Shown piece by piece: positions 17,101-52,383 of a stretch of DNA of 64,000 bases (within the stretch, counting starts at the first letter, position 1; every line of letters starts with the position of its first letter). The notes under the pieces are model-generated. The model did not search any database and was not told where the DNA came from. It saw nothing but the letters and a program-made list of their open reading frames with translations. The DNA comes from Ciborinia camelliae (taxonomy: Eukaryota; Ascomycota; Leotiomycetes; Helotiales; Sclerotiniaceae), in NCBI GenBank assembly GCA_025890175.1, contig JANPYM010000006.1:1272376-1336375 (forward strand). Direction: 5' to 3'. The translations under genes were made by a program, and so were the position numbers.

Positions 17101-20051
17101 TTTTTTGCGATCCTCCTCTGAAGGTTCCAACTTGGGTAGTACTTGTCCAACTATTCTGGCAAAGGAACCCTTTGAATTGAGAATTTTTGGTCCAACAGCT
17201 TCTGCATGATCAGGCAACGGCAGCGGGTGCTCGACTTTTGGAGAGGAGGGAGGGGATGATGATTTTATATGTGTGGAAGTGGATGACTTTCCTATCACAG
17301 GTCCGGAGCTGCTCCCTCGTTTTTTTAATCTTCTTGTTGCAGGTACAGGATTTTTCAGAATCTCTAGTAGTCTTTCTTTTAACGGCACTGATTCAGAAGT
17401 ACAGTTCTCTATACTTGATTCCCCGGTGGGACCAATATTTGGTTCGGCGGGCATTAACGTTGGACACCGGATATTTAACAACGCTGCCAACTCGGCCTCC
17501 TTCTCTGCCTTCTTCTCAACCTGCTTACGCTGTTGATTGGATATCATCTCCCCTCTTGCCTCAAAGCTCTTAATCTTTCTAATTTCTCCATTTAACTTCA
17601 AAACTTTCTTCGCTATTGCTTTTTGATCCTTTGATTGCGCAACCTCCCATTGTGGAGCCACAAACAGTTTATTTGGGGCGTTCATCATTTTATCGGATTT
17701 GTCAGAGCGATGTTTGATTTTGACTGGACCACTTGGTGGAGCACCTTCATTGATGGGGCCACTATGCGCGTCCTTTTTTGAGGATAATGAATTTTGCTGG
17801 GCATTATTTTGGACAGATGAAGAAGGATTTGATTGGAAGCGTCTTGTCGCCGTCAAACTTTTATAACGACGGTAACGATCTTCTTCAGATATGTAGGGCA
17901 TACTGTTGTTTTGCCCTAGTATATTGTTCGAGAATGTCACATCGTTTCGGTTCGGTATATTGTTCGATCCTGGAATATCGTTCGAGAATGTCACATCGTT
18001 CCGGCTCGGTATATCGTTTGAGCCCGGTATATCGTTCGAGCCCGGTATATCGTTCGAGAATGTCACATCGTTCCGGCCTGGTATATTGTTCGATCCTGGA
18101 ATATCGTTCGAACCAGGTATATTATTCGAATAGATACTGTCATTTGTGGTTGGTTCGAGATTTTGAGACGGCCCTGGACACTGTTCATCGAACCCTTGAC
18201 GTAAGAAGATTTCCTCTTGATTGGACTTGATATCTTGATGTCTGGTTTCATTTAGGCTGCTTGAAGGACCATCTGTATCTGTCGCGTTGAAGAATGCGTT
18301 TAGATATTCTTCAAATTTCTGCTCCCTCCTTTTCTTTGTCTCAATCTTCTTCCTGCCATCAACGGATAACTGCCCCCCGCTACCTTGCTGTATCTCCAAA
18401 AGCGTAATCTCTTCAAGGTTTTTGGCTGATTTAACAATCTCGAACCTAATGATTTTCTTGTACTCTGGAATATTTAAGCTCGAATGTAAGACTGCACCGA
18501 ACCTTTGGCCTAAGAAGGCTGACTTTTCGTTTAAGCGCTGGGAAAAAGTTTGTAATTTGTTTTGGGTGTATTTATCCAGTTCTTTATAATTTTTATCGAC
18601 ATCTCGTTTCTGAAGCTTATGTTGGATCTTCTGCGGGTCGGGATAAGCTTGGGCTTGAGAGGGAATTGTATCTGGATTGTCCCATGCCGGATCACAAATT
18701 GTATTTGTTGATATCCCAGATTCATCATAAGTTATATCAAATTTTCCTGCCTGTTCTAGAGAAAACTGACATGTCCATGGACGATATTCCGTCTTCCAGA
18801 ATCCAGGTATGGTACGGTAATCTTGTGACCAACGAAGTGGTGGACGATTGTTTCTCGCCTGCCCTCAAGAAATTAGCCGTGTATTCTTGATATGGTTGAG
18901 GATCAAACCTTCATACCTTAAGCAATAAAAGGGAATAATAATCACTCATATATACTTTACTGCATGTTTCATATACATGCGACGTTTTATTGCATCGCGG
19001 ACAACCCGATATGAACCCAAATTTGTCCACAGGAGACATGCAATTTAATAAACTGTGACCTATCATACCGCAGTTCCCACAAACTAATTTTCCTCGGGAT
19101 TTTGGGGCTCTGCCAGGACGATTGATCTGGTTTTTTGCTAGTGTACCGTTCATTGAAGTTGTTGCGGCATTGGCAACCTCACAAGGTTCATTCAAGGTAT
19201 TTAGATCAGTACCATCGTCAATGCCATCAAACTGTGATGTTGTTTTGGCTTGAAGCAGTCTATCACATGGTGGCGTGGCAGCATGCAATGGTTCGATATG
19301 TTGTTGAGTTGTAGGAGATAGTGGGATGTCGTCTGACTGCGATGAATGCTGGTCTGTCGGCAAGGACTGTGCGGGATTAACTAGACCAGAAGCAACAACT
19401 GAAGCCAAAGGGTATGGTGAATACTTGGAGGTGGATCTTTGTGATTCCAGTGGTCTGGAGCTGTGTGGAAATATGGGATGTGGGCGGTCAGAGCATGTGG
19501 CAGGAACAGAAGGGCTTCGTGATAGGTTTGGCCTAGGAGTATCAAGCATGCAATCGAGGATGATTGGAGCATTATCATCTGGAGCATCATTTGGAGCATC
19601 ATCTGGAGCATCATTTGAAGCATCATCTGGAGCATCATCTGGAGCATCATCTGGAGCATCATCTGGAGCATCATCGTCTTGAGCCAAAGTGAGTGCTGCT
19701 GGAGATGGTGACTCTTCAGGGGAGTTTGTAGTATAGTTCGGTCCCTGGTACTCGGTGGGCTGTGGCGCGGATGTCTGTAGGAATATGCCCGCTAGGAACT
19801 CTTCGTTGGGCCCTGTATCACAATTAATATGAAGCGCACATTTTCCTAGGCATTTTCAACAAACAGAAGTGTCTCCATGTCTCGACTCGGGCTATGATTT
19901 CTTGTACGGGATCGGCGAGATTCGTTCGATCACTTTGGACACGGTCAAGAGTGGTTTCATAATATTCCCAGAAGACACTGCATTTCGTTCCTTCTGACCT
20001 TGCTTTACGGCCCATTGCCTCAAGTTGGAGGATAGGGCTATTGTAACTCAT
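14113..20051 (-). CDS. Giant low-complexity protein with two CCHC zinc knuckles
   Basis: Three exons, 20051-19865, 19812-18917 and 18858-14113, join in frame to about 1,942 residues. Splicing links an N-terminal segment (MSYNSPILQLEAMGRK), a zinc-knuckle region and a long disordered part that otherwise look like separate frames. Two zinc knuckles of form CX2CX4HX4C lie at about residues 307-320 (CGNCGMIGHSLLNC) and 333-346 (CPRCNKTSHVYETC). The rest is hydrophilic and built from several tandem arrays: DDAP near residue 105, NDIPGS about 606-675, a 57-residue unit about 985-1231, DPTPQPI about 1397-1445 and an 18-residue PTPSSSASWRSG unit near 1810-1885. Zinc knuckles commonly bind RNA or single-stranded DNA. 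There is no protease or reverse transcriptase, so it is not an intact retroelement. Function unknown. Confidence 0.75.
14301..14515 (-). repeat. Coding 54-bp repeat (18-residue PTPSSSASWRSG unit)
   Basis: The sequence TGCGCCATGATGCTGA recurs at 14355, 14409 and 14463, an exact 54-bp period, with a divergent extra unit to the left. It encodes Ser/Pro-rich repeats near the C-terminus of the zinc-knuckle protein. Confidence 0.85.
15606..15752 (-). repeat. Coding 21-bp repeat (DPTPQPI), seven copies
   Basis: Seven head-to-tail 21-bp units, almost all identical in DNA, encode the heptapeptide DPTPQPI in the zinc-knuckle protein. Copy number is likely to vary between strains (inference from the near identity). 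Confidence 0.9.
16280..16990 (-). repeat. Coding 171-bp repeat (57 residues), about four to five copies
   Basis: The landmark CATAACTTGGGGATAGC occurs at 16416, 16587 and 16758, a 171-bp period. The units starting at 16416 and 16587 are almost identical, while flanking units are diverged, which shows a recent duplication on top of an older array. The encoded unit contains SPSYAKTASIPDKINKNE. Confidence 0.88.
17915..18125 (-). repeat. Coding Asn/Ile/Pro/Gly repeat array
   Basis: Degenerate units encode (S/G/R)N(D/N)IPGS and RNDVTFSNDIPGS peptides in the zinc-knuckle protein. Confidence 0.8.
19565..19675 (-). repeat. Coding 12-bp repeat (DDAP), about nine copies
   Basis: Units of GGAGCATCATCT encode a run of Asp-Asp-Ala-Pro near residue 105 of the zinc-knuckle protein. 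Confidence 0.9.
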
Positions 20052-24859: not shown

Positions 24860-25624
24860 CTAATTCCTAGGCTCCTCCTCAAAAGTGTGAGGTCTTCCAG
24901 TCTCCTCAGGTACAACACCAGTAACAGTAAAAGTCCTACTTCCAAACGTCAAAGTCTCAGTCTTGAACTCGAAACTCTTGCTCTCATATATACCAGTAAA
25001 GACAGGTTTTTGCGAGTAAACACCAGTTGGCTTAGCATGACCATTGTGATGTTCTTTGCCTCCTTTGCCAGTGGGTTTGGCATGGCCACTCTCGTAGACA
25101 CCAGTTCCGGAGGGATGGTGATGCTTCTTATTTCCAAAGCCGGTCGGCTTTGCGTAGCCACTCTCGTGCCCATAGATGGCACTGCCTGTAGGCTTGGTCT
25201 TGTGAGTTTTGCTCATAGTAGTACCTTCAATGATGTCGCTTTCTATAGTCCTCTTGGGGAGATGCCCAGTGGGCTTTGCGTGGCCACTTTCGTGTGGCTT
25301 GGATACATGACCAGTAGGCTTAGGATCTTTGTGAGACTTAATACCAGTACCAGAGGGGTGGAAGTGGTGATGTTCGGCTTTGCTACCAGTGGGGTGAATG
25401 GTAAATTTAGGCTTCTCCTCGCCAGTGCAAATGGGGATTGGTTCCTTGGGGTTGAAGGAGCCTGTGGGATGGATCTTGAAGGAGTGGTCATCGATGGAGC
25501 CGGTAGGCTTCATGTGGACGGGTCCACTGGGGTGGATAAAATCGGAGGTGAGAGCAATGGGGGAGGCGGAGATTATGGAGATGAGAAGGGCGGCCGTTAC
25601 GCCACAAATCTTCGTGAATTGCAT
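24860..25624 (-). CDS. Secreted His-rich KPTG-repeat protein
   Basis: Single exon, 254 residues. An N-terminal signal peptide is clear: MQFTKICGVTAALLISIISA, with likely cleavage near ASP. The mature protein is built from about a dozen short units ending in PTG or PSG (IHPTGS, HAKPTGH, HHPSGTG), rich in His, Lys and Gly. There is a single dibasic LPKR site mid-protein, suited to Kex2-type cleavage. The C-terminal 50 residues are non-repetitive (FEFKTETLTFGSRTFTVTG). No cysteine pattern or enzyme motif is present apart from one or two Cys. The His clusters could bind metal ions. A TATATATATAAG element about 230 bp upstream (25852-25870) may be its TATA box. A long frame exists on the other strand, but the signal peptide and repeat regularity favour this one. 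Role unknown; cell-wall or effector-like protein is inference. Confidence 0.82.
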   Translation of the reverse strand: MQFTKICGVTAALLISIISASPIALTSDFIHPSGPVHMKPTGSIDDHSFKIHPTGSFNPKEPIPICTGEEKPKFTIHPTGSKAEHHHFHPSGTGIKSHKDPKPTGHVSKPHESGHAKPTGHLPKRTIESDIIEGTTMSKTHKTKPTGSAIYGHESGYAKPTGFGNKKHHHPSGTGVYESGHAKPTGKGGKEHHNGHAKPTGVYSQKPVFTGIYESKSFEFKTETLTFGSRTFTVTGVVPEETGRPHTFEEEPRN

Positions 25625-27776
25625 GATGATAGAAGTCTATTTGCGTAACTTCTGGTTTTGAGAAGATGACTTGCTGAATTGGATGGAATAAAAATGCTTG
25701 AGATGAAATCAAAGCGAGGACCAGCCAATATTGGAATTGAAAAACAAAACTGTAAGGAGTGTGGTAATGAGAACTTGAAAAGTGGAAAGTGATACAGAAT
25801 ACAGTGTTCGAACTGATGATGCAGAAAAGACGCTTTGAAGAGAAGAGATTCGCTTATATATATATACTTGGCATACGAAAAGAAAGGAGTCTAGACTTGC
25901 CATAAACGTGCAGCAAGCCACTCATTCTCATCTCATCATTCCGTAGCCTCGTGATCCTTCCTCATTTGTGCCACCAGTATCATTACAATGATGGCATCCT
26001 CTTTTCCGGGGAAGCTGTTCATTGCTTCCTTAAGCTCATCAGATACGACTATCCGATAAAATAACCAGGAAATTTTTATAAGGTAGGATCGGAGGAATGC
26101 CTACAGTATATGCAAAGAATTGATTCAACCAAGAACAGGAGCTAGGTTTTAAGCAGATCGATTTCTTAGGAAATATAAAACCCAGCCCTTCAAAAAGTCG
26201 AAAGACTTTCGTAGAAATTCAAAAAAATCAGACGGAATCATCCAGCCGGAATAATACATAAGATCAGATCAGGGGTAATCAACTCGAATAGAGTCTAGAC
26301 AGGGCAATTAAATCCCTCCACCACAAATTCGAAACAACCCCCAACCACGTGCTCGAGAGTCCGACAGCCCCGAATCTTTGAAACACCACCTCTTTTCCCA
26401 CATAGGAAAACAGGACGGACGATATAATCTAATCGTGACTGAAGGCTTGGCATAGCCTACACGAAGGAACAAACAACGACCAGTGAAATCCATGGAAATA
26501 TAGCAAGCTTTGCGGGAGGATGGAGAAGATGCTTAATCATTAATCGAGGAAATTGGTGCTTGCGCGTCTTTCTGACAGCTGGGCTTCGTTAGTAAAGTAA
26601 GCTCGGTAAGCTGTTGAAGATTTGAGATTTGAGATCCTTCTTTCCGAGTCATCATGCTACGGTCGGTAAAGTTTAGGCGCTGAGCGGGGCATACAGCGCT
26701 TCATTTTTAAGCTGAAATTGCTCTACAGTTCTCATACTGCTGTACAACACGACTTGAAACCGTTATATCTTCATATTTCTTTAATAATTATCAACTCTTT
26801 CCTCAACACATATTGAAATGTCAGTATGGTTCAACAAAGGGCGCAATATGTGAAATAGAAAGGCATATCAAGTTCGTCATCTTGACATTCTAGGTGAAAA
26901 CAAGACATTCAAGGTATGATCTGAGCAATAAAAACGAACGGATGAACTTTATTGAATAAGAGAACAAAGTGTTTTATCCCCAGTGAATATTTTAAAAGAT
27001 TTTTATCAATTGAATGTACTTTAATCAGATTGCCTAGGTAAGATGGATGGGTGCAGGAATGAAATACACAAACCTTCTTCGCGCCGGCGAGCTGTTGGTA
27101 TCCTTTAGAGCAAGGGGGAAAATTCTCAACGATTGAAAAGAAAATCAAACTATACGTAAAAGTAATCTTCTAGCATAGGTAGGTAATAACACGCAAGAAG
27201 CTTATTGATTAAATATATCTGAAGATTGAGAGATAGGTAGTGATCTCGTATAATGAGATGCTATAGATCCATTGCTCTACAAAGTAGAAAGCACTTAGTA
27301 ATACTGATCTTATAGTTGCATACAAGTAAACACAATTGCTTGACAACTTATCTTATGAGAGATTTGTACTTTCGTATCCTTACCGATGAGCGATTCAATC
27401 CACATGAACTTGTCATTTCCAGATTCGGAATTATGAAAGACTTGCAGAGGTGAGACCGATCATACTTGATACGGCTGAGAAAAGAACTATCAGAATTCAC
27501 TATACTACTTAACTGGTATCTCCTTTGCTCGCGCATCAGGCTAAAAAGCCGCGAATCTCTCATCTGCATCAGCAGGCCACGAATACTAAATATGCCATAT
27601 ATCCACCATTCTTGTCCCTATCCCATCATATCATCATGCCAATAAATCCCAATGCAAAACATGCATCGACAAACACCCGGAATGCCCGTGGGCCCGACCC
27701 ATGAAATGAACCAACTATCTTACCCATCTTGCACCAATTCAAGTCAAAACCGCTAAATGCATCATTATCATATATC
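25625..27776. other. Long intergenic region, no gene seen
   Basis: Two kilobases of AT-rich DNA with a TATA-like run near 25852, no conserved frame, and two CCTAGG/GGTAGG patches near 27033 and 27180. Searched for tRNA arms by eye without success. Confidence 0.45.
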
Positions 27777-36559: not shown

Positions 36560-38523
36560 TATATTTTGTTGGTTGTTCTGGGTATTGAGCACACTGATAA
36601 GTTAAAACTTAATCTTGGTATATGCCTTGATCGTGCTAGGTTCATGGCCGCCGACCCCGGGCTTGAGAGTACAATCTCCTCCTCTTGCGACCGGTCTAGT
36701 AAATATCTCTAATCAAGGAGAACCGCTATTGGGACTTGTTTTCAACGGCTCGAGAAGTTGGGCCAATGCTTCAGAAAAAGCCAGACTACCGTCCCAGAGA
36801 GGCTTAATGCTATGCCCCGAAGTATTCGCACACTACACACCTCTTCATTGCTCTTTATGTGGTGGGGAGTCATCTACATCTCCTGGCAAATGCAAGGATC
36901 CGAACGCATCTGGTTGGACCTGCGAATGTGAGCTCATCGAATTAAGTGTCCAAAAACATATACTGTACCAATGATATCCCAGGCACAAATCAGTGGTCTA
37001 ATGGGTTAACAACCTCTCTGGTCTCGACCACAGTAGGAGGGGTTAGTACAACTGGAACTTTCGAACTTGAAACTATGAGCGATTACACCAATCTCAGACA
37101 GTCATTACAATAAGAGGAACTGCTACTGCTACTAGTTCAACCAATTCGAGTGTCGAGACCGTTGCTCTTGTTGTTTTCGCTGGCGGTGTTGCATGGTTTT
37201 TAGCTGGTAATAACTTCGCAATCATGTATGTGCGTCCAAGCTGATTATTACGTTTTAGATGCATCTGGGGGTTCTGCAGCTTTATCTGCTCTTAATCCTC
37301 CAGAGGGTCCAAAAGATCGCCCCGGATGATCCCCAATGTCCAACCCCCAGCAAGATTGCCAGGACTGTGGAGGTGTCAACCAAATGTGTGTTGCCCCTGA
37401 TTCTGGCTGTAAGTTAATTGGAAACCCTATTTCTTCTCGAGGATCTCTAATCAACTAGGCGGATGCGAGGAAAAAGATGACAGCGACAAACAAACAGTAT
37501 ATAGAGATAGCTCGTGCCAGGGACAAGATGGTAAATGCACAACTGGGTAATATCAAGGCTGCGGCTGTGAACAGCTAGAATGCCCTGATCTTACCAAGGG
37601 CATGTTCTTGTGTATTTGGTGTGGGGGAAAGACCGAGGAGGGGAAATGTAAAGGTGTAAGTCGTCGTTACATATTCATCAAGTGAACAATTACTCCAATA
37701 CTAACAGTGGCTAGGATCCGGATGATGATTATGAATTTGCAGGATATGATTGCGAGGACACGCCTGACTGGAACCAACCTCCACCTCTCAAGGTCCGACT
37801 TAACGCTGCACTAAACTCGCAAAAGCTCTTAAATCTGCCCGATATTGTATATGACCCACCAGCTTTGACATCCAGCGCCAAGCCCCAACCGAGCTGCGAC
37901 CCAAAAGAGTCTTCCGGGGTACCATGGAACGTCTTTTCGCCAGGAGTACACACAAGCTTCTGTGAGAACATGGGGGATAACAAGACTAATCAAGTTGGAA
38001 AGGTTGTGGACAGTAAAGGCAACCCGATTCACATCAAGACCGCCAAAAACCATCAGTTTCCAACTCCACTAGTATACTGGGCAGGACGCCGCCGCCAAAT
38101 CCCGATTATTACACGGACTATACCTTCGCGCTCACCTGGTCAGGTGGGAACAGATCATGCAATGATAATTTCACCTAGATGTATCACAGGATGACAGAAA
38201 GTCCCTGTGGACACACAGGTGGGGAACAAGAAAGCATGGCTTCCGAGGCAAAAATTGACACAGGCTGTGACATCTATTCCTATTCCATCATTGGTACTCC
38301 ATCACCAATAGCGACATCCGCACCCGCACCCGCACCATCACCACCACCAAGACTCGAAAAGATCATTAGTTGCACCGATCATTCAAATCCGGATTACCTA
38401 CCATTCGCACTCAAGGAAGCAACAGATTACATCTCTAAATTTTGCGCCGCTGATCTCTCGAAACCAGTTGCAGATGCATATATACTAAAAGATGTCAAGC
38501 TTGAGTTGACAAGCTTGAGTTGA
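36560..38523 (+). pseudogene. Decayed Cys-rich secreted protein, chitinase-like C-terminal region
   Basis: Conserved-looking blocks can be followed across intron-like junctions: CSLCGGESSTSPGKCK, SSVETVALVVFAGG, QDCQDCGGVNQMC, GKCTTG-stop-YQGCGC, CPDLTKGMFLCIWCGG, CEDTPDWNQPPP and ESPCGHTGGEQESMAS. Three in-frame stops interrupt otherwise continuous blocks: TGA near 37332, TAA near 37547 and TAG near 38177. A frameshift lies near 38080, where PPPNPDYYTDYTFAL continues in another frame. The paralogous relic at 33.5 kb has GAA where this one has TAA, so that stop is a derived mutation. No catalytic domain is left. Similar Cys-rich tails occur in fungal GH18/killer-toxin-like chitinases; I hold that family link as moderate at best. 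Confidence 0.68.
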
Positions 38524-39374: not shown

Positions 39375-41052
39375 CTAATGGAATCTAGAACCCTTCCTCA
39401 TTCTTTCTCCATAAAGCATCAACGCCACAAGTGCGGGCAAGAACGCAATGGAAATGAAAGCCAATAACGAATTACCCCATCCTAGTCCCAAACGATTATA
39501 CAAAGGTGGTCCAACCAGTGGTAGAATAGCAGCGAACAGAGCACGGAGTATACAACAGACAGCCACTGCTGAAGCTGCATGTAGTTCATGTACATCGACG
39601 AGATAATTTTCTGTGGGTAGTATCGCTAATATGAAACTAAATCCCACAATTGCGGTGCCAATAATTGGGACGATCCAATGAACGTGTTTTTCGGCAGACC
39701 AGCCGTAGAGGAACAGACCGATAGGAAGGACAATGCCGCCGAGAAGCATGAGTGGAAGTCGATGCTCGGGCTTTAGGTAGCCCTCTTTCGTTTTTTTGTA
39801 TTTGATGTACCGGTCAGAGACCAGGCCATAGAGCAGCATAGCGATAACATTTCCAGCAGCTGGTAGAAGTCAGTATTGTTGTCTACACTCCCAATGAAAG
39901 AACAGGAAATCCGTACCTCTTCCCAGAAATGCAAGCCCCACGGGACCCTGACCAAGTCCATAATTATCCTCCAGGATTGGAGTAAGTGTAGTGAGAATGA
40001 CATAGGAGATACCATAAACAAAAGCCGTGAAGAAAGATATGACAAACACGATTGGCGACAAGAATAGCATTTTGATTGGCCGCAGGAACGATTCCTTTAG
40101 ATCCGTATGCTTTTTCGAACTTTCATATTTCGATTTCAGGTTTTCATTCCCCGTACTTCTACGGAGTCGATCTGTTTTCCGCTTCACAAGTATAACCTTG
40201 TATGTTTCCCGAAAAGTAAGAAACCCAAAACAAGTGACTGCCCCTACAGCAATAACGACGATCCAGATACTCCACCGCCAACCTTTCGCTTCGGTGATGT
40301 AAGAACCGACGACCGGTCCGGCAAACGGTCCGAGGAGTGGAAAAGCAATAGCTACCGACATAGCGGTCCCTCGATCTTCTTTTCTGAAAAGGTCTCCGAC
40401 AATACTTGGCCCCAAAGTCACAGAGCAGACGACAAATCCACACAGAAACCGAAAAGCAATGAGCATAGACATATTAGTACTTAATGCACCTCCTGTGAGA
40501 CACAGAATAAAGAGGAGATTGCCAGCATGGTAGACGGGCATTCGACCATAGACTTCCGAAAGGGGTCCAACTAAGAAGGGTCCGAAGACTTCGCCGAGCT
40601 CCCAAATTGATACGAGTAACGTCGAGTATAGCTCATTGGTAACGTGAAATTCTTCCATTACGCGTGGTACTGCTGGAACGATAGTGATGGTACCCAGGTT
40701 ACTATAGTCAAACAAATTAGATATGTTATTGAAATGCATTTTGAAAATCAAAGATCACGCCATTTTGCGATAGGAGAGGACTTGAGTGAAAACATCCAAC
40801 ATACACCAACATGAACATCAACGCCGTACAGCTAACTATTGACCATTTTCGCCATGAAGGCCAATTCAGGGGATGCTCCGGGTCATTCTCATCGATATCA
40901 ATAACGTTTTCATCATTCTCCTGAGCGTCAGATAAAGTCCCGGTTGCGGTGGTCAAAACTTCTGGTTTTTCCGAGGGTATGGCAATATTCTGGTCTAAAC
41001 TTGTTCCCAATACTTCTTCCTGTAAAGAAACGTCGAGAATTGGGTTATCCAT
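39375..41052 (-). CDS. Major facilitator superfamily multidrug-type exporter (DHA1)
   Basis: Three exons, 41052-40805, 40701-39917 and 39859-39375, encode 505 residues. A cytosolic acidic N-terminus (IDIDENDPEHPLNWPSWRKW) is typical of fungal drug:proton antiporters. Twelve hydrophobic segments follow. The motif A region reads GPLSEVYGRMPVY between helices 2 and 3, and an antiporter-type motif C, GPFAGPVVGSYI, lies in helix 5. Such proteins export drugs, polyamines or secondary metabolites through the plasma membrane. It is the leftmost member of the putative RiPP cluster, where self-protective export of the peptide product is the natural role (inference). Splice joins restore NLGTITIVPAVPRVM and AAGNVIAMLLYGLVSD. 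The start at 41052 (MDNPILDV) was preferred over upstream ATGs that lack family resemblance. Confidence 0.88.
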
Positions 41053-42363
41053 TATCAGCTTAAGATGAGCCCATAAATAAATAGATTGAAGATAGGTTGC
41101 AGAACTTACTGTCATGGTAGGAAAAATCTTTTGTATTTGGGTCATCCAATTCTTGGAGATTGGAGAACATTAAGATACCGAGGAAAAGCCGGCAATGTAA
41201 CATTAACACACATGGTAATCTGGCCTTGCTATTCTGTCCAATCGTTTGCTTTACGATATTAATAACACTGAAACCAGTCAAAAAGTTTGAGTTGCACTGG
41301 TGGGAGCAAAAGCCTCAAGGTCAAGTGGATGGTATGCAGAACTAATTACATACCGGTAGCTTCCAATTCAGTATTGGGAGTTACATTGGTCGAGTACTCT
41401 CTTCTGTTTGAATTTCAAATCCAGAAGAATTAGAATTTGCCTCCTGAATGTCCACCACTTTCCATGCTACATCCGAATACTTGAGAGGATATTTGCAATC
41501 TCATACATCGAGTATCCGTGCTATTGCAGCCTCGGTAACAAAATGGATTCAGGGTAGGCTTATCTTCTCGGGATGAAATGGAAGGTCAATCACTTCCTTG
41601 ATGGCATGAATACCGGATAATTTTGAACATAGTAAAGATATGCGAGATACATAAGTTCCAGGTTATGGTTGCATGCCAGTGGTAAATTCACTACTAACGG
41701 GATAGCTGGCGAACCTTTGGCTCCACAATTAGTTTGTGGATGGAATACTCTGAAGATATCCAAAACTACTCGGCAACAATCGACCCACATCACCATAATC
41801 GACGAAATTCAGACCGTCTCAGCACCAAAGGCCTGGGGCTGTATGTATTGCTACGTTCTCGATGCAGTGCGTGCACTAGGGCAATGCCTTGCTTGCAAGC
41901 AATAGCAACTCTAATCTCCATAATTTGTATGAAGAAAGGTGTACAGTACTAGGGCAAGAGGGGTAAAGATCTATATAAGCAACCGGGAGCATCCTAAATT
42001 CCAATTGGCTGTATCTATATTGAACCGGCAGATTTCTGATTCGACCTTTATCCCCACTATAGCTTATGCGCTTCTATGGATCGTGCGGCGCAGCTACCGC
42101 ACTTTTGCTGGTATCCTTATCTCGGCCAAGCCTATATTCGGCATTATCAACCCGCCGTCTTATTCTGATGATGAAATAGATGTAACGGTTGTCATTTTGT
42201 TATGACCAGGGTGCCCAGAGGTTGTGCGGAGACATCATGCTGCTTTAGTCGAAACATGGTAAACTTAGTACATTTAACGTACAACATCAAAATGTGTCTC
42301 TCTGTCTTAAGTCAGTGATGAAAAGTTCGAACTCTGGCAAGAACCTTCGTTGATTCAAACAGC
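41053..42363. other. Divergent promoter region between MFS and UstY genes
   Basis: 1.3 kb between the minus-strand transporter and the plus-strand UstY gene. Short frames at 41669-42205 have no recognisable domain. Nothing else supported. Confidence 0.45.
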
Positions 42364-43300
42364 ATGTATCGTGCTCTTCGTTCAAACAGTCCTTCAAGGG
42401 ATGACTCTACAGACGCCGAAAAGTTCTATGAACTTCCCGAAAATCATGCCTCAAGAAGTTTTCTTCGCAAGAACTTCTCGTGTTTTCTCTTGATACTTTC
42501 ACTGATTACAAATTTGGGTTTTATCGTCGACATAACGACGAGAAGAGATGTTTCCCAGTGTTTGGAAAGTTCAAAATTTGGTTTGTTGTTTCCTGCCTCG
42601 GCCTCGGCGAGCCAGCCACAGTTTCAGCATAGCAAAATACTGACCATTTATTCCCAGCTGAATTAAAAAGAACGATCCCAAAAGCGTGGACTCCGAACAG
42701 TGGTGCCAATGAAACCGAACAGGATATGCTCTGGGACGAAACAAGCTACGATCGTGGTCAAATTGCGCTTGCCGACGACTATGCGAAGGAAATGGGACTT
42801 CCGAGAGCCCAGAGATTTCCCTGGGATGAGTCAAAAGGTATCTACCTTATAAATGCATATCATAACATACATTGCGTCGTAAGTTCATCCGTTGAACAAA
42901 ACACAGGAAGATGCGCAAAAATTGACGAGCAAACTAGAAAACCATCCGAACGTCAGTGATAGAGTTCCACAATGACATGCCACAAAGTTCGCCATACCTT
43001 CATATCATCCACTGCCTGAATGTACTTCGCGATGAAATTATGTGCAATGCGGATGATACTCCACGATATACGGGCTTTCAAGACAACCAGAAGAGTGGCC
43101 TGGGTCAAGTGCGGATGTGTCGTGATTGGAAGAAGCTCGAGTCCTGGGCTGATGAGCACACTGCTTGCTGGAGACACGTTGGAGAAATAAGAGAGGATGG
43201 GTTCCGAGAATTGGATAGATATCGTTTCTGCCCACCTGGGTCACCTTATGAGGAGATGGCTAAAACTGCATGGCTACGTCCAAGCAATAGTAATGAGTAA
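42364..43300 (+). CDS. UstY/DUF3328-type oxidative cyclisation protein
   Basis: Three exons, 42364-42580, 42658-42878 and 42938-43300, encode 266 residues. A short cytosolic tail is followed by one membrane anchor (CFLLILSLITNLGFIVDI), then the DUF3328 core: LWDETSYDRGQIAL, GLPRAQRFPWDESKGIYLINAYHNIHC with the first HxxHC at residues 141-145, and PYLHIIHCLNVLRDEIMCNADDTP with the second HxxHC at 168-172. Both motifs are intact. Members such as UstYa catalyse copper-dependent oxidative macrocyclisation of ribosomal peptides (ustiloxins, phomopsins, asperipin) in the secretory pathway. It lies 0.6 kb from the small secreted precursor, to which it converges. Splicing at 42937/42938 restores HCVKTIRTSVIEF. 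Family assignment is firm; its substrate is inferred from the neighbouring precursor. Confidence 0.9.
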
Positions 43301-43891
43301 CGTGGAAATACCAGAAGATGTTTCAATATCGATATGGCGTGGTTTTGGTGGTCTTTGAGAAGGTTACTTTGTTTTAGCCTTGCGGTATCAAAAGCTGTGA
43401 TAGGTTGCGAGCCCTTCACGGTATCCGATGAAAACTTCACCTGGACTTCAAAATTGACAAGCGGCGTATACCAACCATTCAAAAGCGGCATGTTAGAAAG
43501 TGACAGCATCATCTAACACCAAAACAGCATCTGAGAGAAGAACGGAAGTACATTGACATTGAAATTGAATGTAGAAAGGTAGAACTTGGTGGGGTACAGC
43601 GGATTTATCACGTGATTACGATACACGATTCCCGGAAGTTACCACTGCACACTTTCCCCTTGTTCTTATTTTGAGGGGATAAAACCCTCCATATCACGAC
43701 GGTTTACTTGTGAGCAGAATTACGATATAAAACTCCTTTGTCATTTCTCGTAATCATTAACGTAAGTGCTCCTTCGACGACAGCGCTCGCATCCCGTAAT
43801 CTTTGCCACCACAATTCCGCATTCCCCCAAAACAAGATCGATTCCAATCCCTCACTTCTGTGCACCCTCTTGTATAATCTCCGGTACATAC
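43301..43891. other. Convergent spacer in the RiPP-like cluster
   Basis: 3' flanks of the UstY and precursor genes, with TTTATCACGTGATTACG near 43605. A 60-codon frame (43334-43516, +) starts with a hydrophobic Trp-rich stretch but has no processing sites and is not called. Confidence 0.45.
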
Positions 43892-44190
43892 TCAGTGCTT
43901 GAGATCTGCTTGTGGAACTGGCTCGATCGCCTCATCGTCGCGAGCAGGGAGTGGGGTGTCCCAATCACTCAAGGGGTTCCGAACGTAGTCGGCATCACGC
44001 TTATGAGGAATGGTTTCGATCGAGTCGCTCAATGGATTTCTGACGTACCCCGTTTCCCGTTCTAAGGCGCCGATTAGTCTTTGCTGAAAGACTAGGGAGG
44101 GGTCAACATACCTGTGAGGTCTTTGATTGGTACAGCAGCGATGAGGACACTGGCGGCGAAGAGGCACAGTACTCGAAGTAACATTGCCAT
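43892..44190 (-). CDS. Putative dikaritin-type RiPP precursor peptide with two YVRNPLSD cores
   Basis: Two exons, 44190-44112 and 44061-43892, joined by a 50-bp GT-AG intron with a GACTAAT branch site, encode 82 residues. The first 20 or so form a signal peptide (MAMLLRVLCLFAASVLIAAV). The mature part contains the octapeptide YVRNPLSD twice, at residues 32-39 and 52-59, in a 20-residue period. A Kex2-type KR (47-48) lies between them, followed by DAD before the second core; an acidic tail follows. This is the architecture of fungal dikaritin precursors (secretion signal, kexin-cleaved repeats, core beginning with Tyr); the phomopsin core also begins Tyr-Val. The gene sits between a UstY-type enzyme and a methyltransferase. 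The core sequence is unlike any I know. Repeat and splice structure are seen directly; RiPP identity is inferred. Confidence 0.78.
43964..44047 (-). repeat. Duplicated core-peptide coding units
   Basis: Core 1 is encoded at 44047-44024 and core 2 at 43987-43964. The eight amino acids are identical, but six of the eight codons differ, all synonymously (for example GTC/GTT, AGA/CGG, AAT/AAC). Confidence 0.85.
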
Positions 44191-45026
44191 AGTGGAATCA
44201 ATTGAGTGTAGAGGGTTTTAGAAGAGGAAGTTGTACAAAGAATTCGGGTTGATCAGATCAACTATGAATCCAGCGGATCTTTGGCAATATGTAAGTCAGA
44301 GAAAAACAAGATTGCTGACCTAGAAAAACAATCCCCATGCCAACAATGCTTCTGTTGCTTCGACACCAAAAAATCTTCTCTTGCTGCTTTTCGGCGACCT
44401 AATCTAAAATGGGAAAACATGACATTGCCACGATGCCCAGTTGCAACGGTACGGTTAGTGATTGCTCAAGGCTTTTTCTTGACTCCAACTTTGAGTCTCG
44501 TTCAATATATCACACTCTCCAGATGCAGTCCATCATGCAGACAATTTTTCAGTGCCGCGCGTATCGGTCTTCATGTGTCTACATGCATTGAACAGGATGG
44601 AGACTCTGTAGACTGTCCACAGTCAATGGACATGCATCTAAACCACCATAGTATATTTGTGTGTGGTAGTGGGTGGTTACTATGGCGTCCCCACTCGCAC
44701 GAAAATCCTATTCGAAAAGCCTTCGATCTAGCAAGGATGGCTGCAAGCCACAGCCGTTCCATTTAAGATCCGCACGAATAAACGCTGTGGTCAACATCAA
44801 TGATGGTTGTCGAAATGCAAAATACTTCTGCCTGTTCTTCTTGGAGATAACAAATACATTATTTGAGATTCTTGCATATATATCAGATTGCCCACTCATG
44901 GATGAGCCAATGACAGTATCATTATGCATATAATCCAATTATAGAAGAAGATAAGACATTAATGACTAATACTGAACGATATCAAGGGCTAGGTACCCCT
45001 GAATCCGCACCAAAAAAACCAAATTA
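44191..45026. other. Intergenic between precursor and methyltransferase
   Basis: Precursor promoter to the left and methyltransferase 3' flank to the right. A 161-codon plus-strand frame (44281-44766) has several Cys but no recognisable domain and is not called. Confidence 0.45.
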
Positions 45027-45919
45027 CTAGACCTTCCTCGCAACACACACAATTCTAGGAATACATAACGCCGCGCCCGCTGTGGACTCCAAATATCCTT
45101 GCTGGATAAGCTCATACCACTTTTTTGCCGCATCCACCTTCCCCATCCTCACCAAACTAGACGCAAACTCATCCATTGTCAGGAGATGCTGTTCGTTGAA
45201 CGCTCTGGCCAGACGATCATCATCCCCGAAGAATTGTATTTTCGCATCTCGGAATCCTGCTTCTTGTAAGAAATCCGGCAATTTGACCGTCCAGTCATGC
45301 CTCCCATTTGCCCAAGACATCTCTCTGATCTGTTCTAGAGCCGGGGCCTGTATTTCCGGGTCGACTTTCCTGACGTGCATGTTGACACAGTCGAGCTCGT
45401 CCCACTGCAGATATCCTATACTAGATTAGCAATTGACTTCTCGCTCGGAGATCTTGTGGGCCCTAACTAACCTCCGGGTTTCAACATCCTCAAGAGCTTC
45501 TGGATAACAGACGACTGAGAATTGCTGTCAAGAACCAGCACCAGGAGCCGTACGTGCACGTAGTCGTATTTTCCGACCATATCATCGGGCAAATCCGTGA
45601 AGATATCCCAATGTCTCATCGACACATTTTCCGGTAGCCAGCTTTGATGAGGAGCTTGACGCACGTCGTTATCGAAGCCGTCGAGCGTAGCTTTCGGGAA
45701 GTCTCTAGCAACGTCTAGGAGCCAGGCTCCGGTACCTGTTGCAACATCCGCAATGACGCTATCATTGTTTAACGGAACTGATGGGTGCACAACGAATTGA
45801 AGGGCTTCCTTCCAGAGATAGTACTGTAGATTAAGACGACAGGCGGCGATATGACTACGATCGAATACGTAGCCATGTCCGTCGGCCAAACTCCAGTCCA
45901 CCTTTGAAGATTCTGACAT
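45027..45919 (-). CDS. Class I SAM-dependent methyltransferase
   Basis: Two exons, 45919-45472 and 45415-45027, encode 278 residues. The SAM-binding motif I is IADVATGTGAWLLDVARDFP (about residues 56-75), with acidic LDGFDNDV at the end of strand 2 and WDIFTDLPDD and YDYVHVRLL as motifs II and III. Splicing completes MLKPGGYLQWDE, the post-motif III signature. There is no signal peptide, so it is probably cytosolic. Related fungal enzymes methylate secondary metabolites. Phomopsin and ustiloxin pathways each use a methyltransferase that N-methylates the peptide, and this gene is the next reading frame after the precursor on the same strand, so peptide methylation is a sensible but unproven role. 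Confidence 0.88.
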
Positions 45920-46472
45920 GCTGATCGGCAGGGATGGATAAACGAAAAGCCAAAATTAAGTATGAACGATGAAGTGATACCAGTGTTTACACAACCTTTG
46001 TATGAAAGATTTATTTTCAAGTAGCAACCCGAATTGTCATCTTTTTTAAATCCATATGAATTATTAATGCTCGGAAAAGAAGATCCATCAGCCTGCACTG
46101 CGCCGCATTCTATGCCATTTTAATCATCAACTGCATATACCTGATACCATGGGTCATTCACCCACCCCTCAAACTTAATGTAGTTATTTTAATTGGTCAT
46201 TTGTGTCTAAAGATACGTATTCATACAGCAAGGTATTTCGAAAGACAAGTAAGATCTTGGTTAAAAAATTTGGGCGAGTGGAAGAGGCAAATGATTCAAC
46301 ATAACTAAAAACATAATTCTATTCGCATAAAAATTCGTTGAACGTCCTTATCCTGGCAATTTCACCATGAAAACCTGATGATGTAAAAATAAACTGTCAT
46401 GGAGAAAACTCGTGCCAATAATCGTTGTCATCACCTGTACCAGCCACGTTGTATGCAACCCCAAAAGTCCTC
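45920..46472. other. Intergenic, no gene seen
   Basis: Promoter of the methyltransferase gene and 3' flank of the seven-helix protein gene. No other coding signal. Confidence 0.45.
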
Positions 46473-47938
46473 CTATGGTTTGGTCGAAATTCTAGTATGA
46501 GATTGCCCCGGTGACATTGGAACCAGAGGTAATTCAAATCCATCCTCGACGTGTGATAGCTTGTAAGGGTCAACAATCTGCTCATGAGCAACAGAACTAG
46601 CACCAAGCTGGGAGGATTGCGAAACCTTCTTTGTCACCAAAATCTCAGTGTCTGGTGCAGTATTGTCATTAGTTCGAGAGCTCGACGTAAATCGCGATCG
46701 GAGGGAGTCTAGTCCCAGCAGACTTCCGAGGCTTGATAGGGGGTGGCGAAATGGTGGCCGAGCTATGATATAATGAAGAGTAGGGAGACAGGCTGCTATC
46801 AATGCAAGGCCGCTTTCAAGACCACTGTAATACAGGAGAATCGTAAGTGTTACTATTAATATAATTAGTATGGGTCAACAAAGCTGGAAAGTACTACCTA
46901 CAATCAACATCCGTATGGGCAGCATACCCGCCATTAGATATTTCCAATTGGACCATCAATCTTATAATGGCCGCAACTAGAGATCTGAAAGATATCAGCC
47001 AGGCTTGATAATATGCCATAAGTGACTTACCCAGCTGCGAGAAAGAAGATTCCAGTAATATAAAGCTTTTGGGACCTTGGCATTCTCAGAGTCCAGACCT
47101 GGTACTAATCAGTAAATTGCAAATAGCATGGCAGGAAATGAGACCAACCGCTGGCATTGGCAGAAGCCAAACTATCGCATCTGTTATGAGATCCGATATC
47201 ATAAGACCATCCAATCTCATGTTAGTATTGCATTCCATGATGAACATCAATGGCTTCCAGGGATTTGTAAAGTGTCTTCCACAACCAAATAACGTTGCAA
47301 ACCAAAACGCAACAGTCCAGAGTGAGCATATTACTAGAAGTCCCTTGCTAACCATATCAAATGACGTTCCTTTATTAACCACGAACAGACGGCGATACAG
47401 GAATATCGCACTGAGTTTGATCAGACCGTTTGCAGGAATCATGAGTAACCATATTATCCAATCGAGCTGGAACCGTGTTAGCAACCATATTTCTCGTTAT
47501 TCCCGGGCCATGAAATTTGTATACCAATTCCACTAGTTTTTGAGCAGGTACGATCTCTGTTAGTTGTGTCTCGAGCGTCGCATTGGGGAGTTGTGGTGTA
47601 GGATATCCAAGACTATGTTTTGCAGCACCTATTCATCGCGTTAGACCTATGGATGCCAATAGTGAGTTGCGACCGACCATATATAAGACATATGCCCATT
47701 CCAATGACAAAGATCTGTTAGGCATATATCAGTATAAACCCTCAATTAAGATATTATATCAAATGCTTACCAAAGCCAAAAGAATCGTGTAGTCATCTGG
47801 ACCAACCTTGACTTTCTGATACGAACGAAGCCAGAAACGAAGACCAACAACAATGATCCCTATGATGGGAAGGATTATTCCCGCAGAGATGACTTCTCCT
47901 GGCCCGACGAAAGCGATGGCAAGTTCGTTCGCAGACAT
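46473..47938 (-). CDS. Seven-transmembrane rhodopsin-domain (PTH11-like) protein
   Basis: Seven exons, 47938-47771, 47714-47678, 47628-47525, 47466-47149, 47098-47031, 46984-46898 and 46824-46473, encode 377 residues. Hydrophobic helices are spread through the first 280 residues: VISAGIILPIIGIIVVGL, YTILLAL joined to IFVIGMGICLIYG, WIIWLLMIPANGLIKLSAIF with the usual LIKLS..FLYRR family landmark, GLLVICSLWTVAFWFATLFGCG, DLITDAIVWLLPMPAVW and SGLESGLALIAACLPTL. The C-terminal tail is cytosolic and Ser-rich. This large ascomycete family of integral membrane proteins lacks the CFEM domain here; functions are mostly unknown, some members sensing surface cues. It may mark the right edge of the RiPP-like cluster or be unrelated. 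Confidence 0.82.
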
Positions 47939-50333: not shown

Positions 50334-51017
50334 CTTCAAGTTTGCGTGCGATATAGTAACCTTATCGTACTTCTCTTAACTTTTCTTTGTTTTCCGATAT
50401 ACGTTTTATTCAGTAGGTATCGATACCGAAGTAATTTAATTTAATTCGATGTTGAGTATCGTATCGTAGGTAAGGTAAAGGATGTATCGTATGCAATTGA
50501 GCTATAGTAATGTAGTAATAAAGGATGCGTATCTTCTCAGGTAGGTAGGTATCTCATGAAGTTTCCCGAAAGAAAAAATGAGGAGTATTTATTTCTTTTG
50601 AAGTGTGAGGTTTAAAGTTTTGATATAATTAGAAAAGCAAATCCTGGATCCCAAAGGGAAAGCAGGATCTTTATATAGGTAGGTACCTAAGTAAGAACCC
50701 CTCCTCCCCTCATCGTCATCGTCATCATCATCATTTCCCCTTTCCCATCGTCATCGCCCCTTTCCTTTCCTTTCCTTTCCTATTCTCTTTCACATCCAAA
50801 AACCGCACACACAAGAAAAAAGAAGAAGAAAACAAGAAAACAAGAAACCAGAGTTTTCATGACGTAGGTACGTAAGTGTGGGTATAGTATAGTTTAAATT
50901 CATGAAACGCTTTCCTTTATCCCCTCATTCATTTCATCCAATCCCTCCCTTCATTCATTCATTCCACCCAACACACCGCACATTTCCATCCGAGGGAGCA
51001 TCAGCTCCGTCAGCTCC

Positions 51018-51115
51018 ATCCTCAAATCCATCCTCAAATCCATCCTCAAATCCATCCTCAAATCCATCCTCAAATCCATCCTCAAATCCATCCTCAAATC
51101 CATCCTCAAAGGAAC
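51018..51115. repeat. 12-bp tandem repeat ATCCTCAAATCC, about eight copies
   Basis: Head-to-tail, nearly identical units. They keep an open frame (Asn-Pro-Ser-Ser) only because the unit length is a multiple of three. Confidence 0.9.
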
Positions 51116-51182
51116 GCCACCACCACCACCAACTACCGCAACTACTCTAGTACTCTAGCCCTCTACTTTCCTCCTCCAACCA

Positions 51183-51260
51183 TCCAATCCAATCCAATCC
51201 AATCCAATCCAATCCAATCCAATCCAATCCAATCCAATCCAATCCAATCCAATCCAATCC
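51183..51260. repeat. 5-bp microsatellite (CCAAT)n, about 15 copies
   Basis: Perfect pentanucleotide array. Each unit contains a CCAAT box, but the array lies between a divergent promoter and a 3' flank and is best seen as a microsatellite. Confidence 0.92.
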
Positions 51261-52383
51261 AGCCAGATCTCCATCTCCATCCCCATCCCCATCTCATCTC
51301 CATCTCTCGATTTAAAAGAAACAAACAATAAAAAACAATAATAACAAAAACAAAAAATGACAATCTCATGCAAGGGGGCCGGAACTGTGACTTCCTTCCA
51401 ATGGGATGCGACACTATCACAAACCACCACAAACCTACACATACGTCATTCACATTAACATTCCCATTCGCAAGCAAGCCAACGCAAGCAACCCCCCCCC
51501 CAAAAAAAACGCCCATCTGACTTCCCATCCACCAACAAGGACCTGACCTTCCTCCTCAGAAAAAAATCCAACCTCCAACCTAGACTTTTCATTCAAGTTT
51601 AGCTTTTCATCCAGGTTTTCATTTTCATATTCATTTTCATATTCATGTTCATAGAGACATAGGAATCCTTCCATAATAATCCTTCCACAGTACCTAGGAG
51701 AAGACCCACCCATATATACCAGACCAAAAAAAAGCTACGCTGTGTATAGATAGGTATATGGGGAAAAGCACCAGCACGGCAACCAATCAATCAATAAAAA
51801 ACCCACATCTAGTAAGTAAGCAGTAACGTGGTAATCCACAAAAATGTATCAATATCGACTCTCGAGGTTGATCAATCGAGGATAATCACTCGAGATCAAT
51901 CCATAAATATAATAAAACTATTGCCTCCACCTCATCCCCCTCCCCCATCCCCAATCCCCCATTCCCCCACCCAAAACCACGCCAAACGTACAAGAGGGGG
52001 AGAGAGAAAAAAAAAGACACCCTCCCAATCCCAACAATTCACTTTCACCAGAAAAAAAAAGCGCCAAGAAATGCGTATATACAAATACTGCGCCTTGAAT
52101 ATCCCACCCTACCTATCCACCCCCTCGCTTACGGAAAAGATATCTATGAACCGTGAATGCAATCATAATGCATTCAGTAGTGCATCCCAAAACCTATTGT
52201 GGTGCGAGAGACGATCCGTAATGAAATGGGTATGTTCGTCCATTAATTAAACCTTGCTCACTCCTAAACTCCATTTCCTGATAATTTGGATGTGTCGATG
52301 TTCGCTCGTTAACCTCTATTCGAATACGTTGTATGTCTGCTATCCTCAAGATAACAGTGATTAAGGTGCTATGAGATGTTGGG

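What the first reader, a model, noticed from the sequence alone, without database searches (positions are those of the whole stretch)
39375..47938. Putative undescribed dikaritin-type RiPP gene cluster
Within 8.6 kb lie an MFS exporter, a UstY/DUF3328 protein with two intact HxxHC motifs, a small secreted peptide with a duplicated Tyr-led octapeptide and a Kex2 site, a class I methyltransferase and a seven-helix membrane protein. Seen directly: motifs, repeats, signal peptide, spacing. Known: UstY proteins cyclise kexin-released cores in ustiloxin, phomopsin and asperipin pathways, with methyltransferases and exporters in some of them. Inferred: the product is a cyclic peptide built on YVRNPLSD. 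I know of no dikaritin with this core.
Basis: partly seen in the sequence, partly recalled or inferred. Interest (0 to 1): 0.93.

Follow-up and report, generated by a model that had tools for sequence, protein, structure and literature searches.

The report
Conserved low-copy fungal cyclic-peptide gene cluster
A petal-blight fungus carries a small gene for a secreted peptide beside the gene of an enzyme family known to link such peptides into rings; a relative keeps the same pair with only one intact copy of the peptide core, a pattern that repeat-based searches would miss.

Summary
The window is Ciborinia camelliae, with intact genes for an MFS transporter, a UstYa/DUF3328 protein with two HxxHC motifs, an 82-residue secreted peptide with two YVRNPLSD copies and one KR site, a class I methyltransferase, and a PF20684 seven-helix protein. 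The peptide is a conserved gene: Botrytis fragariae has it as Bfra_004942, beside the UstYa homologue Bfra_004943. The two Ciborinia cores differ at 7 of 24 bases, all silent; in two Botrytis homologues the first core is eroded, while the second cassette and tail keep 33/35 residues. The five homologues found carry one intact core, so the peptide fails the published repeat-protein definition (three or more repeats). The UstYa falls in one clade in which UstYa and methyltransferase lie on contigs of equal length in 8 of 8 other testable species, in four fungal classes; but the linked methyltransferases form no clade. In this genome 11 of 31 UstYa loci (this one included) have a PF20684 gene within 4 kb (0.54 expected from local shifts). 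Best reading: a dikaritin-type RiPP locus with a low-copy, strongly conserved precursor. Ring chemistry, methylation, export and the seven-helix protein's role are inferred.

The parts
39375..41052 (-). MFS transporter, 505 aa; exons 41052-40805, 40701-39917, 39859-39375
   Evidence: MFS_1 E 1.6e-44; divergent from the UstYa gene; role as exporter inferred
42364..43300 (+). UstYa/DUF3328 protein, 266 aa; exons 42364-42580, 42658-42878, 42938-43300
   Evidence: PF11807 E 7.2e-23; 82% to Bfra_004943
42861..42875 (+). first HxxHC motif (HNIHC, residues 141-145)
   Evidence: H144 and C145 invariant, H141 nearly so, in 34 rows; on a helix in the model of the Botrytis homologue
43001..43015 (+). second HxxHC motif (HIIHC, residues 168-172)
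   Evidence: H171 and C172 invariant, H168 nearly so, in 34 rows
43892..44190 (-). precursor peptide gene, 82 aa; exons 44190-44112 and 44061-43892, 50-nt intron
   Evidence: identical to NHQ30_005442
44024..44047 (-). first core copy YVRNPLSD (eroded in the two Botrytis homologues)
43997..44002 (-). KR, the only dibasic (Kex2-type) site before a core; kept in both Botrytis homologues, single R in P0004-P0006
43964..43987 (-). second core copy YVRNPLSD (8/8 in both Botrytis homologues)
43895..43939 (-). conserved C-terminal tail DDEAIEPVPQADLKH, possible recognition part or part of the product
   Evidence: 15/15 identical in both Botrytis homologues
45027..45919 (-). class I SAM methyltransferase, 278 aa; exons 45919-45472, 45415-45027 (NHQ30_005443)
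46473..47938 (-). seven-helix membrane protein, PF20684, 377 aa, seven exons
   Evidence: PF20684-UstYa proximity genome-wide

Best explanation
A dikaritin-type (UstYa-modified) RiPP locus with a low-copy precursor. The 82-residue peptide enters the ER by its signal peptide. A kexin cuts after KR, releasing a stretch that begins DADYVRNPLSDWDTPLPAR. The membrane-anchored, presumably copper-dependent UstYa oxidises the Tyr-led core, most likely joining the Tyr side chain to another residue into a ring. The methyltransferase probably methylates the released product (the alpha-amino group is the best guess, by analogy with ustiloxin), and the MFS protein probably exports it. The seven-helix protein is a recurrent neighbour of UstYa genes. 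SHOWN: gene structures, motifs, conservation of precursor and core, precursor-UstYa neighbourhood in two genera (in Botrytis by consecutive tags), UstYa-methyltransferase linkage in one UstYa clade, PF20684-UstYa proximity in this genome. INFERRED: every biochemical step.
For: Precursor homologues: 6 proteins at E up to 1 in a database of 5.77 billion, the Ciborinia protein itself, Botrytis fragariae and Botryotinia globosa among them; RD.DY.RNPLSDWDTPLP.RDDE is in 6 of 6. Consecutive tags Bfra_004942/Bfra_004943. Ciborinia against each Botrytis homologue: 18 of 27 residues differ in 21-47, 2 of 35 in 48-82 (Fisher 3.1e-7); UstYa 219/266 identical to B. fragariae. Silent-only divergence of the two cores. 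A 28-row UstYa group, SH-aLRT 100, holds 9 of 9 methyltransferase-linked rows, Ciborinia included; contigs of equal length in 8 of 8 other species inside, 0 of 5 outside, Fisher 7.8e-4. Exactly one gene number lies between UstYa and methyltransferase in 4 of the 5 species with serial tags, as the precursor does in Ciborinia. HxxHC motifs on two helices behind one TM-like helix in the AF2 model of the Botrytis homologue, as described for CctR, a copper enzyme (PMC12435403, abstract and passages).
Against: No expression or metabolite data. Only 1-2 cores and one KR; in 3 of 6 homologues (P0004-P0006) the site before the core is a single R, so kexin cutting is not certain there. UstYa-type proteins also act on non-ribosomal peptides (cyclochlorotine, PMC12435403). 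The linked methyltransferases do not form one clade (9 rows need 3 changes; 500 of 500 shuffles as low). The genes between UstYa and methyltransferase in other fungi were not read. Conservation of MFS and 7TM beside this UstYa in other species was not tested. The conserved tail may mean a longer product than the octapeptide.
Confidence: 0.75

Rival explanations
1. The peptide is a linear secreted signal, pheromone-like or host-directed peptide, and the UstYa next door serves another substrate.
For: Strong conservation of the whole C-terminal 35 residues also fits a linear ligand; only one dibasic site; UstYa loci are common here (31 loci).
Against: UstYa and precursor are neighbours in two genera. 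In PMC7329392 almost all mating-factor or pheromone repeat proteins (three exceptions) lack DUF3328 neighbours (abstract), and Tyr-bearing repeats are commoner among those that have one (65.6% against 38.2%; section 7).
Confidence: 0.12
2. Only precursor, UstYa and perhaps the methyltransferase form a pathway; MFS and/or the seven-helix protein are chance neighbours.
For: MFS genes are abundant (432 first-look candidates). Conservation of MFS and 7TM next to this UstYa clade elsewhere was not tested.
Against: PF20684 lies within 4 kb of 11 of 31 UstYa loci, 10 of 30 without this one, against a mean of 0.54 and a maximum of 2 in 54 local shifts.
Confidence: 0.4
3. The mature product is a longer peptide (about 19 or 34 residues after the KR cut), not the octapeptide.
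For: WDTPLP and the 15-residue tail are as conserved as the core; no dibasic site follows the second core.
Against: Between the two Ciborinia copies only YVRNPLSD and scattered residues are shared, with silent-only change in the octapeptide.
Confidence: 0.35
4. UstYa and methyltransferase belong to a non-ribosomal or other small-molecule pathway; the peptide ORF is incidental.
For: DUF3328 enzymes act in cyclochlorotine biosynthesis (PMC12435403).
Against: No NRPS or PKS domain in the 17 frames or gene models given to Pfam (not every ORF of the window was scanned); the peptide's C-terminal 35 residues are more conserved between genera than the UstYa.
Confidence: 0.05

Closest known systems
Asperipin-2a pathway (Aspergillus flavus)
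   Same: One DUF3328 gene, a transporter, ring closure at Tyr (PMC12048977 and PMC7329392 passages)
   Different: Its cluster has a reductase and its precursor is multi-repeat (recalled); here 1-2 cores and a methyltransferase
Ustiloxin and phomopsin pathways
   Same: DUF3328 enzymes, methyltransferase, Kex2-type precursor
   Different: They have 2 and 5 DUF3328 genes and need a tyrosinase; here one UstYa and no tyrosinase match on the contig
Kex2-processed repeat proteins (KEPs), PMC7329392
   Same: N-terminal hydrophobic stretch, KR site, DUF3328 gene next door
   Different: KEPs need at least 3 tandem repeats of at least 8 aa between dibasic sites; this one has 2 copies and the five homologues found have 1
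Lichen DUF3328 clusters without a recognised repeat precursor (PMC12048977)
   Same: UstY homologue, methyltransferases in clan R1, no repeats; the authors name a single core peptide as one possibility
   Different: Clans R1 and R2 differ in genes (tyrosinase, GNAT); here a concrete precursor is seen. Whether their UstY homologues belong to the clade was not tested; three Lecanoromycete species do (Varicellaria, Ikaeria, Caloplaca; class of Caloplaca recalled)

Membership tests
Dikaritin (DUF3328 as class-defining enzyme, as reported in PMC12048977) | DUF3328 protein with two HxxHC motifs | tested here: met
Dikaritin | Secreted ribosomal precursor beside it | tested here: met
   hydrophobic N-terminus (hydropathy only, no signal-peptide predictor) and gene adjacency
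Dikaritin | Highly repeated core sequences | tested here: not met
   two copies in Ciborinia, one intact core in each of the five homologues found
Dikaritin (five-gene definition, as reported in PMC12048977) | Tyrosinase and several DUF3328 genes | tested here: not met
   no PF00264 match on contig C24 (12 matches elsewhere); one PF11807 match in the window
Dikaritin | Side-chain ether or similar macrocycle in the product | not testable with these tools
   needs LC-MS/NMR
KEP (PMC7329392) | At least 3 tandem repeats of at least 8 aa between dibasic sites | tested here: not met
DUF3328 copper enzymes | N-terminal TM helix, HxxHC(x)nHxxHC on paired helices | tested here: met
   hydropathy on the Ciborinia protein; model of the 82%-identical Botrytis homologue, a monomer, pLDDT 82.3, best of five
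DUF3328 copper enzymes | Copper and dioxygen dependence | not testable with these tools
   biochemistry
UstYa clade linked to a methyltransferase | Methyltransferases of one orthologous group | tested here: not met
   linked methyltransferases scattered in a quick tree of the 120 listed of 474 proteins

The most novel reading that the evidence does not exclude
An ancient, widespread class of essentially single-core UstYa RiPPs: one UstYa clade spanning Leotiomycetes, Eurotiomycetes, Dothideomycetes and Lecanoromycetes is built around a compact UstYa-precursor-methyltransferase unit whose precursors are not repetitive and so were missed, including in lichens. UstYa enzymes as a group also work with a dedicated PF20684 seven-helix membrane partner, perhaps the missing electron or Cu(I) supplier that the CctR authors postulated.
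Probability: 0.3. Interest if true: 0.75.

Novelty: new variant of a known kind. Interest (0 to 1): 0.6.

Why it matters
The large published survey of these fungal peptides (PMC7329392) looked for repeated cores. This locus is a conserved example with one or two cores, which such a search misses. It suggests a concrete candidate answer to the reported missing precursor in lichen DUF3328 clusters and points to named single genes to check. The recurrent PF20684 membrane protein beside UstYa genes makes the open question of how these lumenal copper enzymes are supplied or regulated testable by gene removal.

Tried and rejected
Relatives of the precursor (A1) and of UstYa (A3) were sought in viral contigs, and of UstYa in bacterial and archaeal genome contigs: none confirmed. 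No solved chain matched the UstYa sequence at E 1 or the methyltransferase at E 0.01; the model of the Botrytis UstYa had no solved match at E 0.001 (best 0.62). No further copy of the precursor was found in the genome: the 2 matches up to E 10 are its own exons. MFS could not serve as a genome-wide control, because 9 of 432 candidates were scored. A 28-nt intron for the precursor was rejected: the frame breaks. I considered the 7TM as a marker of repeat-peptide UstYa loci and dropped that: among 18 fetched UstYa loci, repeat precursors, judged by eye from the scan, were seen in 7 (L011, L012, L015, L020, L021, L022/L030, L025), namely 2 of the 6 with a 7TM within 4 kb and 5 of the 12 without. 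I do not use the second Fisher test, because its two rows are not comparable.
Full report
WHERE IT IS. The peptide and the methyltransferase in the window equal NHQ30_005442 and NHQ30_005443 of Ciborinia camelliae at 100%, so the window is that fungus (Helotiales, Sclerotiniaceae). The nearest identified genes outside are a protein kinase frame at 31-32 kb and F-box and leucine-rich-repeat frames at 52.9-54.5 kb. Between those and the cluster only one frame (37715-38194, no family) was given to Pfam, so the borders are not fixed.

THE FIVE GENES. Exon models were built by hand from consensus splice sites and checked for open frames: MFS 505 aa and UstYa 266 aa, peptide 82 aa, methyltransferase 278 aa, seven-helix protein 377 aa with six introns. 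Pfam places four of them: MFS_1, UstYa, methyltransferase domains, Fung_rhodopsin PF20684; the peptide matches no family. Hydropathy gives seven hydrophobic stretches in the PF20684 protein, one in UstYa and one N-terminal stretch in the peptide. A 28-nt alternative intron of the peptide breaks the frame. The 50-nt intron gives exactly the public protein. For UstYa, no 100% Ciborinia entry appeared, so that model is supported by its homologues only.

IS THE PEPTIDE REAL? Yes. A search of a database of 5.77 billion proteins returned 6 with E up to 1: itself, Botrytis fragariae (66%), Botryotinia globosa (65%) and three without a name. The search reaches only relatives sharing short exact words, so more may exist. 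The pattern RD.DY.RNPLSDWDTPLP.RDDE is in 6 of 6. Against each Botrytis homologue, 18 of 27 residues differ in residues 21-47, up to the KR cut, but 2 of 35 in 48-82 (Fisher 3.1e-7), while UstYa is 219/266 identical between Ciborinia and B. fragariae. The two Ciborinia octapeptides differ at 7 of 24 bases without any amino-acid change; random placement gave that in 7 of 500,000 trials. In 20,000 shuffles of the processed part no repeat longer than 6 aa arose, against 8 observed. No other copy was found in the genome.

The duplication is not general. In both Botrytis homologues the first core is eroded (2 of 8 residues kept), and the three unnamed homologues have one core. The only dibasic site before a core in the Ciborinia peptide is KR; P0004-P0006 have a single R there. 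A product limited to the octapeptide is not established, because WDTPLP and the tail are as conserved as the core.

NEIGHBOURHOOD IN OTHER FUNGI. Bfra_004942 (peptide) and Bfra_004943 (UstYa) are consecutive tags. The UstYa search gave 72 proteins at E 1e-5 and the methyltransferase search 474 at E 1e-20, of which the best 120 are listed. Eight species other than Ciborinia have a UstYa in the Ciborinia clade and a listed methyltransferase, and in 8 of 8 the two lie on contigs of the same length: Hymenoscyphus fraxineus, Penicillium pulvis, Aspergillus transmontanensis, Lophiotrema nucula, Varicellaria rhodocarpa, cf. Caloplaca sp., Byssothecium circinans, Ikaeria aurantiellina. These are Leotiomycetes, Eurotiomycetes, Dothideomycetes and Lecanoromycetes (Caloplaca's class recalled). 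Five species with a UstYa outside the clade and a listed methyltransferase (Mycoblastus, Puttea, Hypoxylon cercidicola, Botrytis deweyae, B. paeoniae) have them on contigs of different length: 0 of 5 (Fisher 7.8e-4). Six other named species in the clade, Botrytis fragariae among them, had no methyltransferase among the 120 listed and are undecided. In 4 of the 5 species with serial tags exactly one number lies between the two (8534/8536, 4424/4426, 735/737, 3026/3028; H. fraxineus 561/565), as in Ciborinia, where the precursor lies between them. In a quick UstYa tree of 72 rows, 9 of 9 linked rows, Ciborinia included, fall in one 28-row group with SH-aLRT 100. Against a simple picture: the linked methyltransferases are scattered in their own quick tree (9 rows, 3 changes, 500 of 500 shuffles as low), so the gene was either recruited more than once or the tree does not resolve it. 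Linkage here rests on equal contig lengths and tags, not on reading the contigs.

THE SEVEN-HELIX NEIGHBOUR. PF11807 gave 58 matches (31 loci merged at 10 kb) and PF20684 148 matches with 150 of 189 candidates scored (106 loci merged at 1 kb). Within 4 kb, 11 of 31 UstYa loci, this one included (10 of 30 without it), have a PF20684 locus; 54 local shifts of 20-150 kb gave a mean of 0.54 and a maximum of 2. Control pairs in the same call: UstYa with P450 4 of 31 (mean 0.67, maximum 3); PF20684 with P450 10 of 106 (mean 1.02, maximum 5). PF20684 genes are thus also enriched near P450 genes, and the UstYa link is the strongest of the three pairs. Counts are lower bounds where candidates were left unscored. 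It is one genome. What the 7TM does is unknown: PF20684 is named a fungal rhodopsin domain, and I recall that such proteins are often called Pth11-like receptors. The CctR authors postulate an accessory protein for electrons or Cu(I) (PMC12435403, passages); a UstYa-linked membrane protein is a candidate, no more.

HOW IT LIKELY WORKS. CctR, and by that paper's account ApnU and AprY, are copper- and dioxygen-dependent dimers; in CctR the HxxHC pairs sit in a predicted coiled coil (PMC12435403, abstract and passages). The Botrytis homologue (82% identical to Ciborinia's) models with one long N-terminal helix (32-64) and both motifs on successive helices (138-157, 166-182), mean pLDDT 82.3 in the best of five models, the others 60.9-77.3. 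The model finds no solved relative, nor does the Ciborinia sequence. I infer: signal-peptide entry, kexin cut at KR, UstYa oxidation of the Tyr-led core, methylation, export.

AGAINST WHAT IS KNOWN. The KEP survey required at least 3 repeats of at least 8 aa between dibasic sites (PMC7329392, section 13), so this peptide and the homologues found fall outside. The same paper reports 22% of KEPs with DUF3328 neighbours, and 2, 5 and 1 DUF3328 genes in the ustiloxin, phomopsin and asperipin-2a pathways (abstract and section 7). A 2025 lichen survey found DUF3328 clusters without repeated precursors and named a single core peptide as one possibility (PMC12048977, passages). A Sclerotinia sclerotiorum survey describes a RiPP candidate defined by paired DUF3328 genes, unlike the single one here (PMC6941272, passages). 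Searches for the core letters and for six locus tags found 0 papers. Searches for DUF3328 with Botrytis (3 papers), for dikaritin terms, for DUF3328 or UstYa with rhodopsin, SAT4 or integral-membrane terms (20 of 26 listed), for DUF3328 or fungal RiPP with Pth11 or seven-transmembrane terms (12 of 55 listed), and for PF20684 with PF11807 or ustiloxin (1 paper) showed no title on this cluster or on a UstYa-7TM link. Of those lists I opened passages of PMC7329392, PMC12048977, PMC6941272 and PMC7317419 only; PMC9632046 and PMC5987419, which hold some of the terms, were not opened, and supplements could not be read. The library lacks most subscription journals.

VERDICT. A real, conserved UstYa-linked peptide locus, undescribed as far as these searches reach: a low-copy variant of the dikaritin kind rather than a new kind.

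Noticed in passing
G000 genome-wide: PF20684 seven-helix genes lie within 4 kb of 11 of 31 UstYa loci (0.54 expected from local shifts).
   Followed up: partly
L011, L012, L015, L020, L021, L022/L030, L025: Other UstYa loci of this genome carry repeat peptides of Kex2 type, judged by eye in 7 of 18 fetched loci, e.g. units KREPDRSVVGTGSDRY (L021) and DADTAIVYPAEKR (L025).
   Followed up: partly
24863-25636 (-): Secreted-looking histidine-rich protein with many HPTG/KPTG repeats (GHAKPTG); no Pfam family above cut-off (24860-25600 scanned).
   Followed up: no
14113-18864 (-): 1583-residue open frame with PTPQPID repeats and IPGSNDIPGRNDV-type repeats.
   Followed up: no
51015-51261: Two nearby perfect microsatellites: 12-bp unit x 8 (51015-51110) and 5-bp unit x 16 (51182-51261).
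   Followed up: no
SS1G_07231 (P0081), EAE98_001541 (P0080): Sclerotinia sclerotiorum and Botrytis deweyae have an 87%-identical methyltransferase; no peptide homologue is named for these species, and the UstYa named for B. deweyae lies outside the clade. Clustered entries may hide unnamed members.
   Followed up: no
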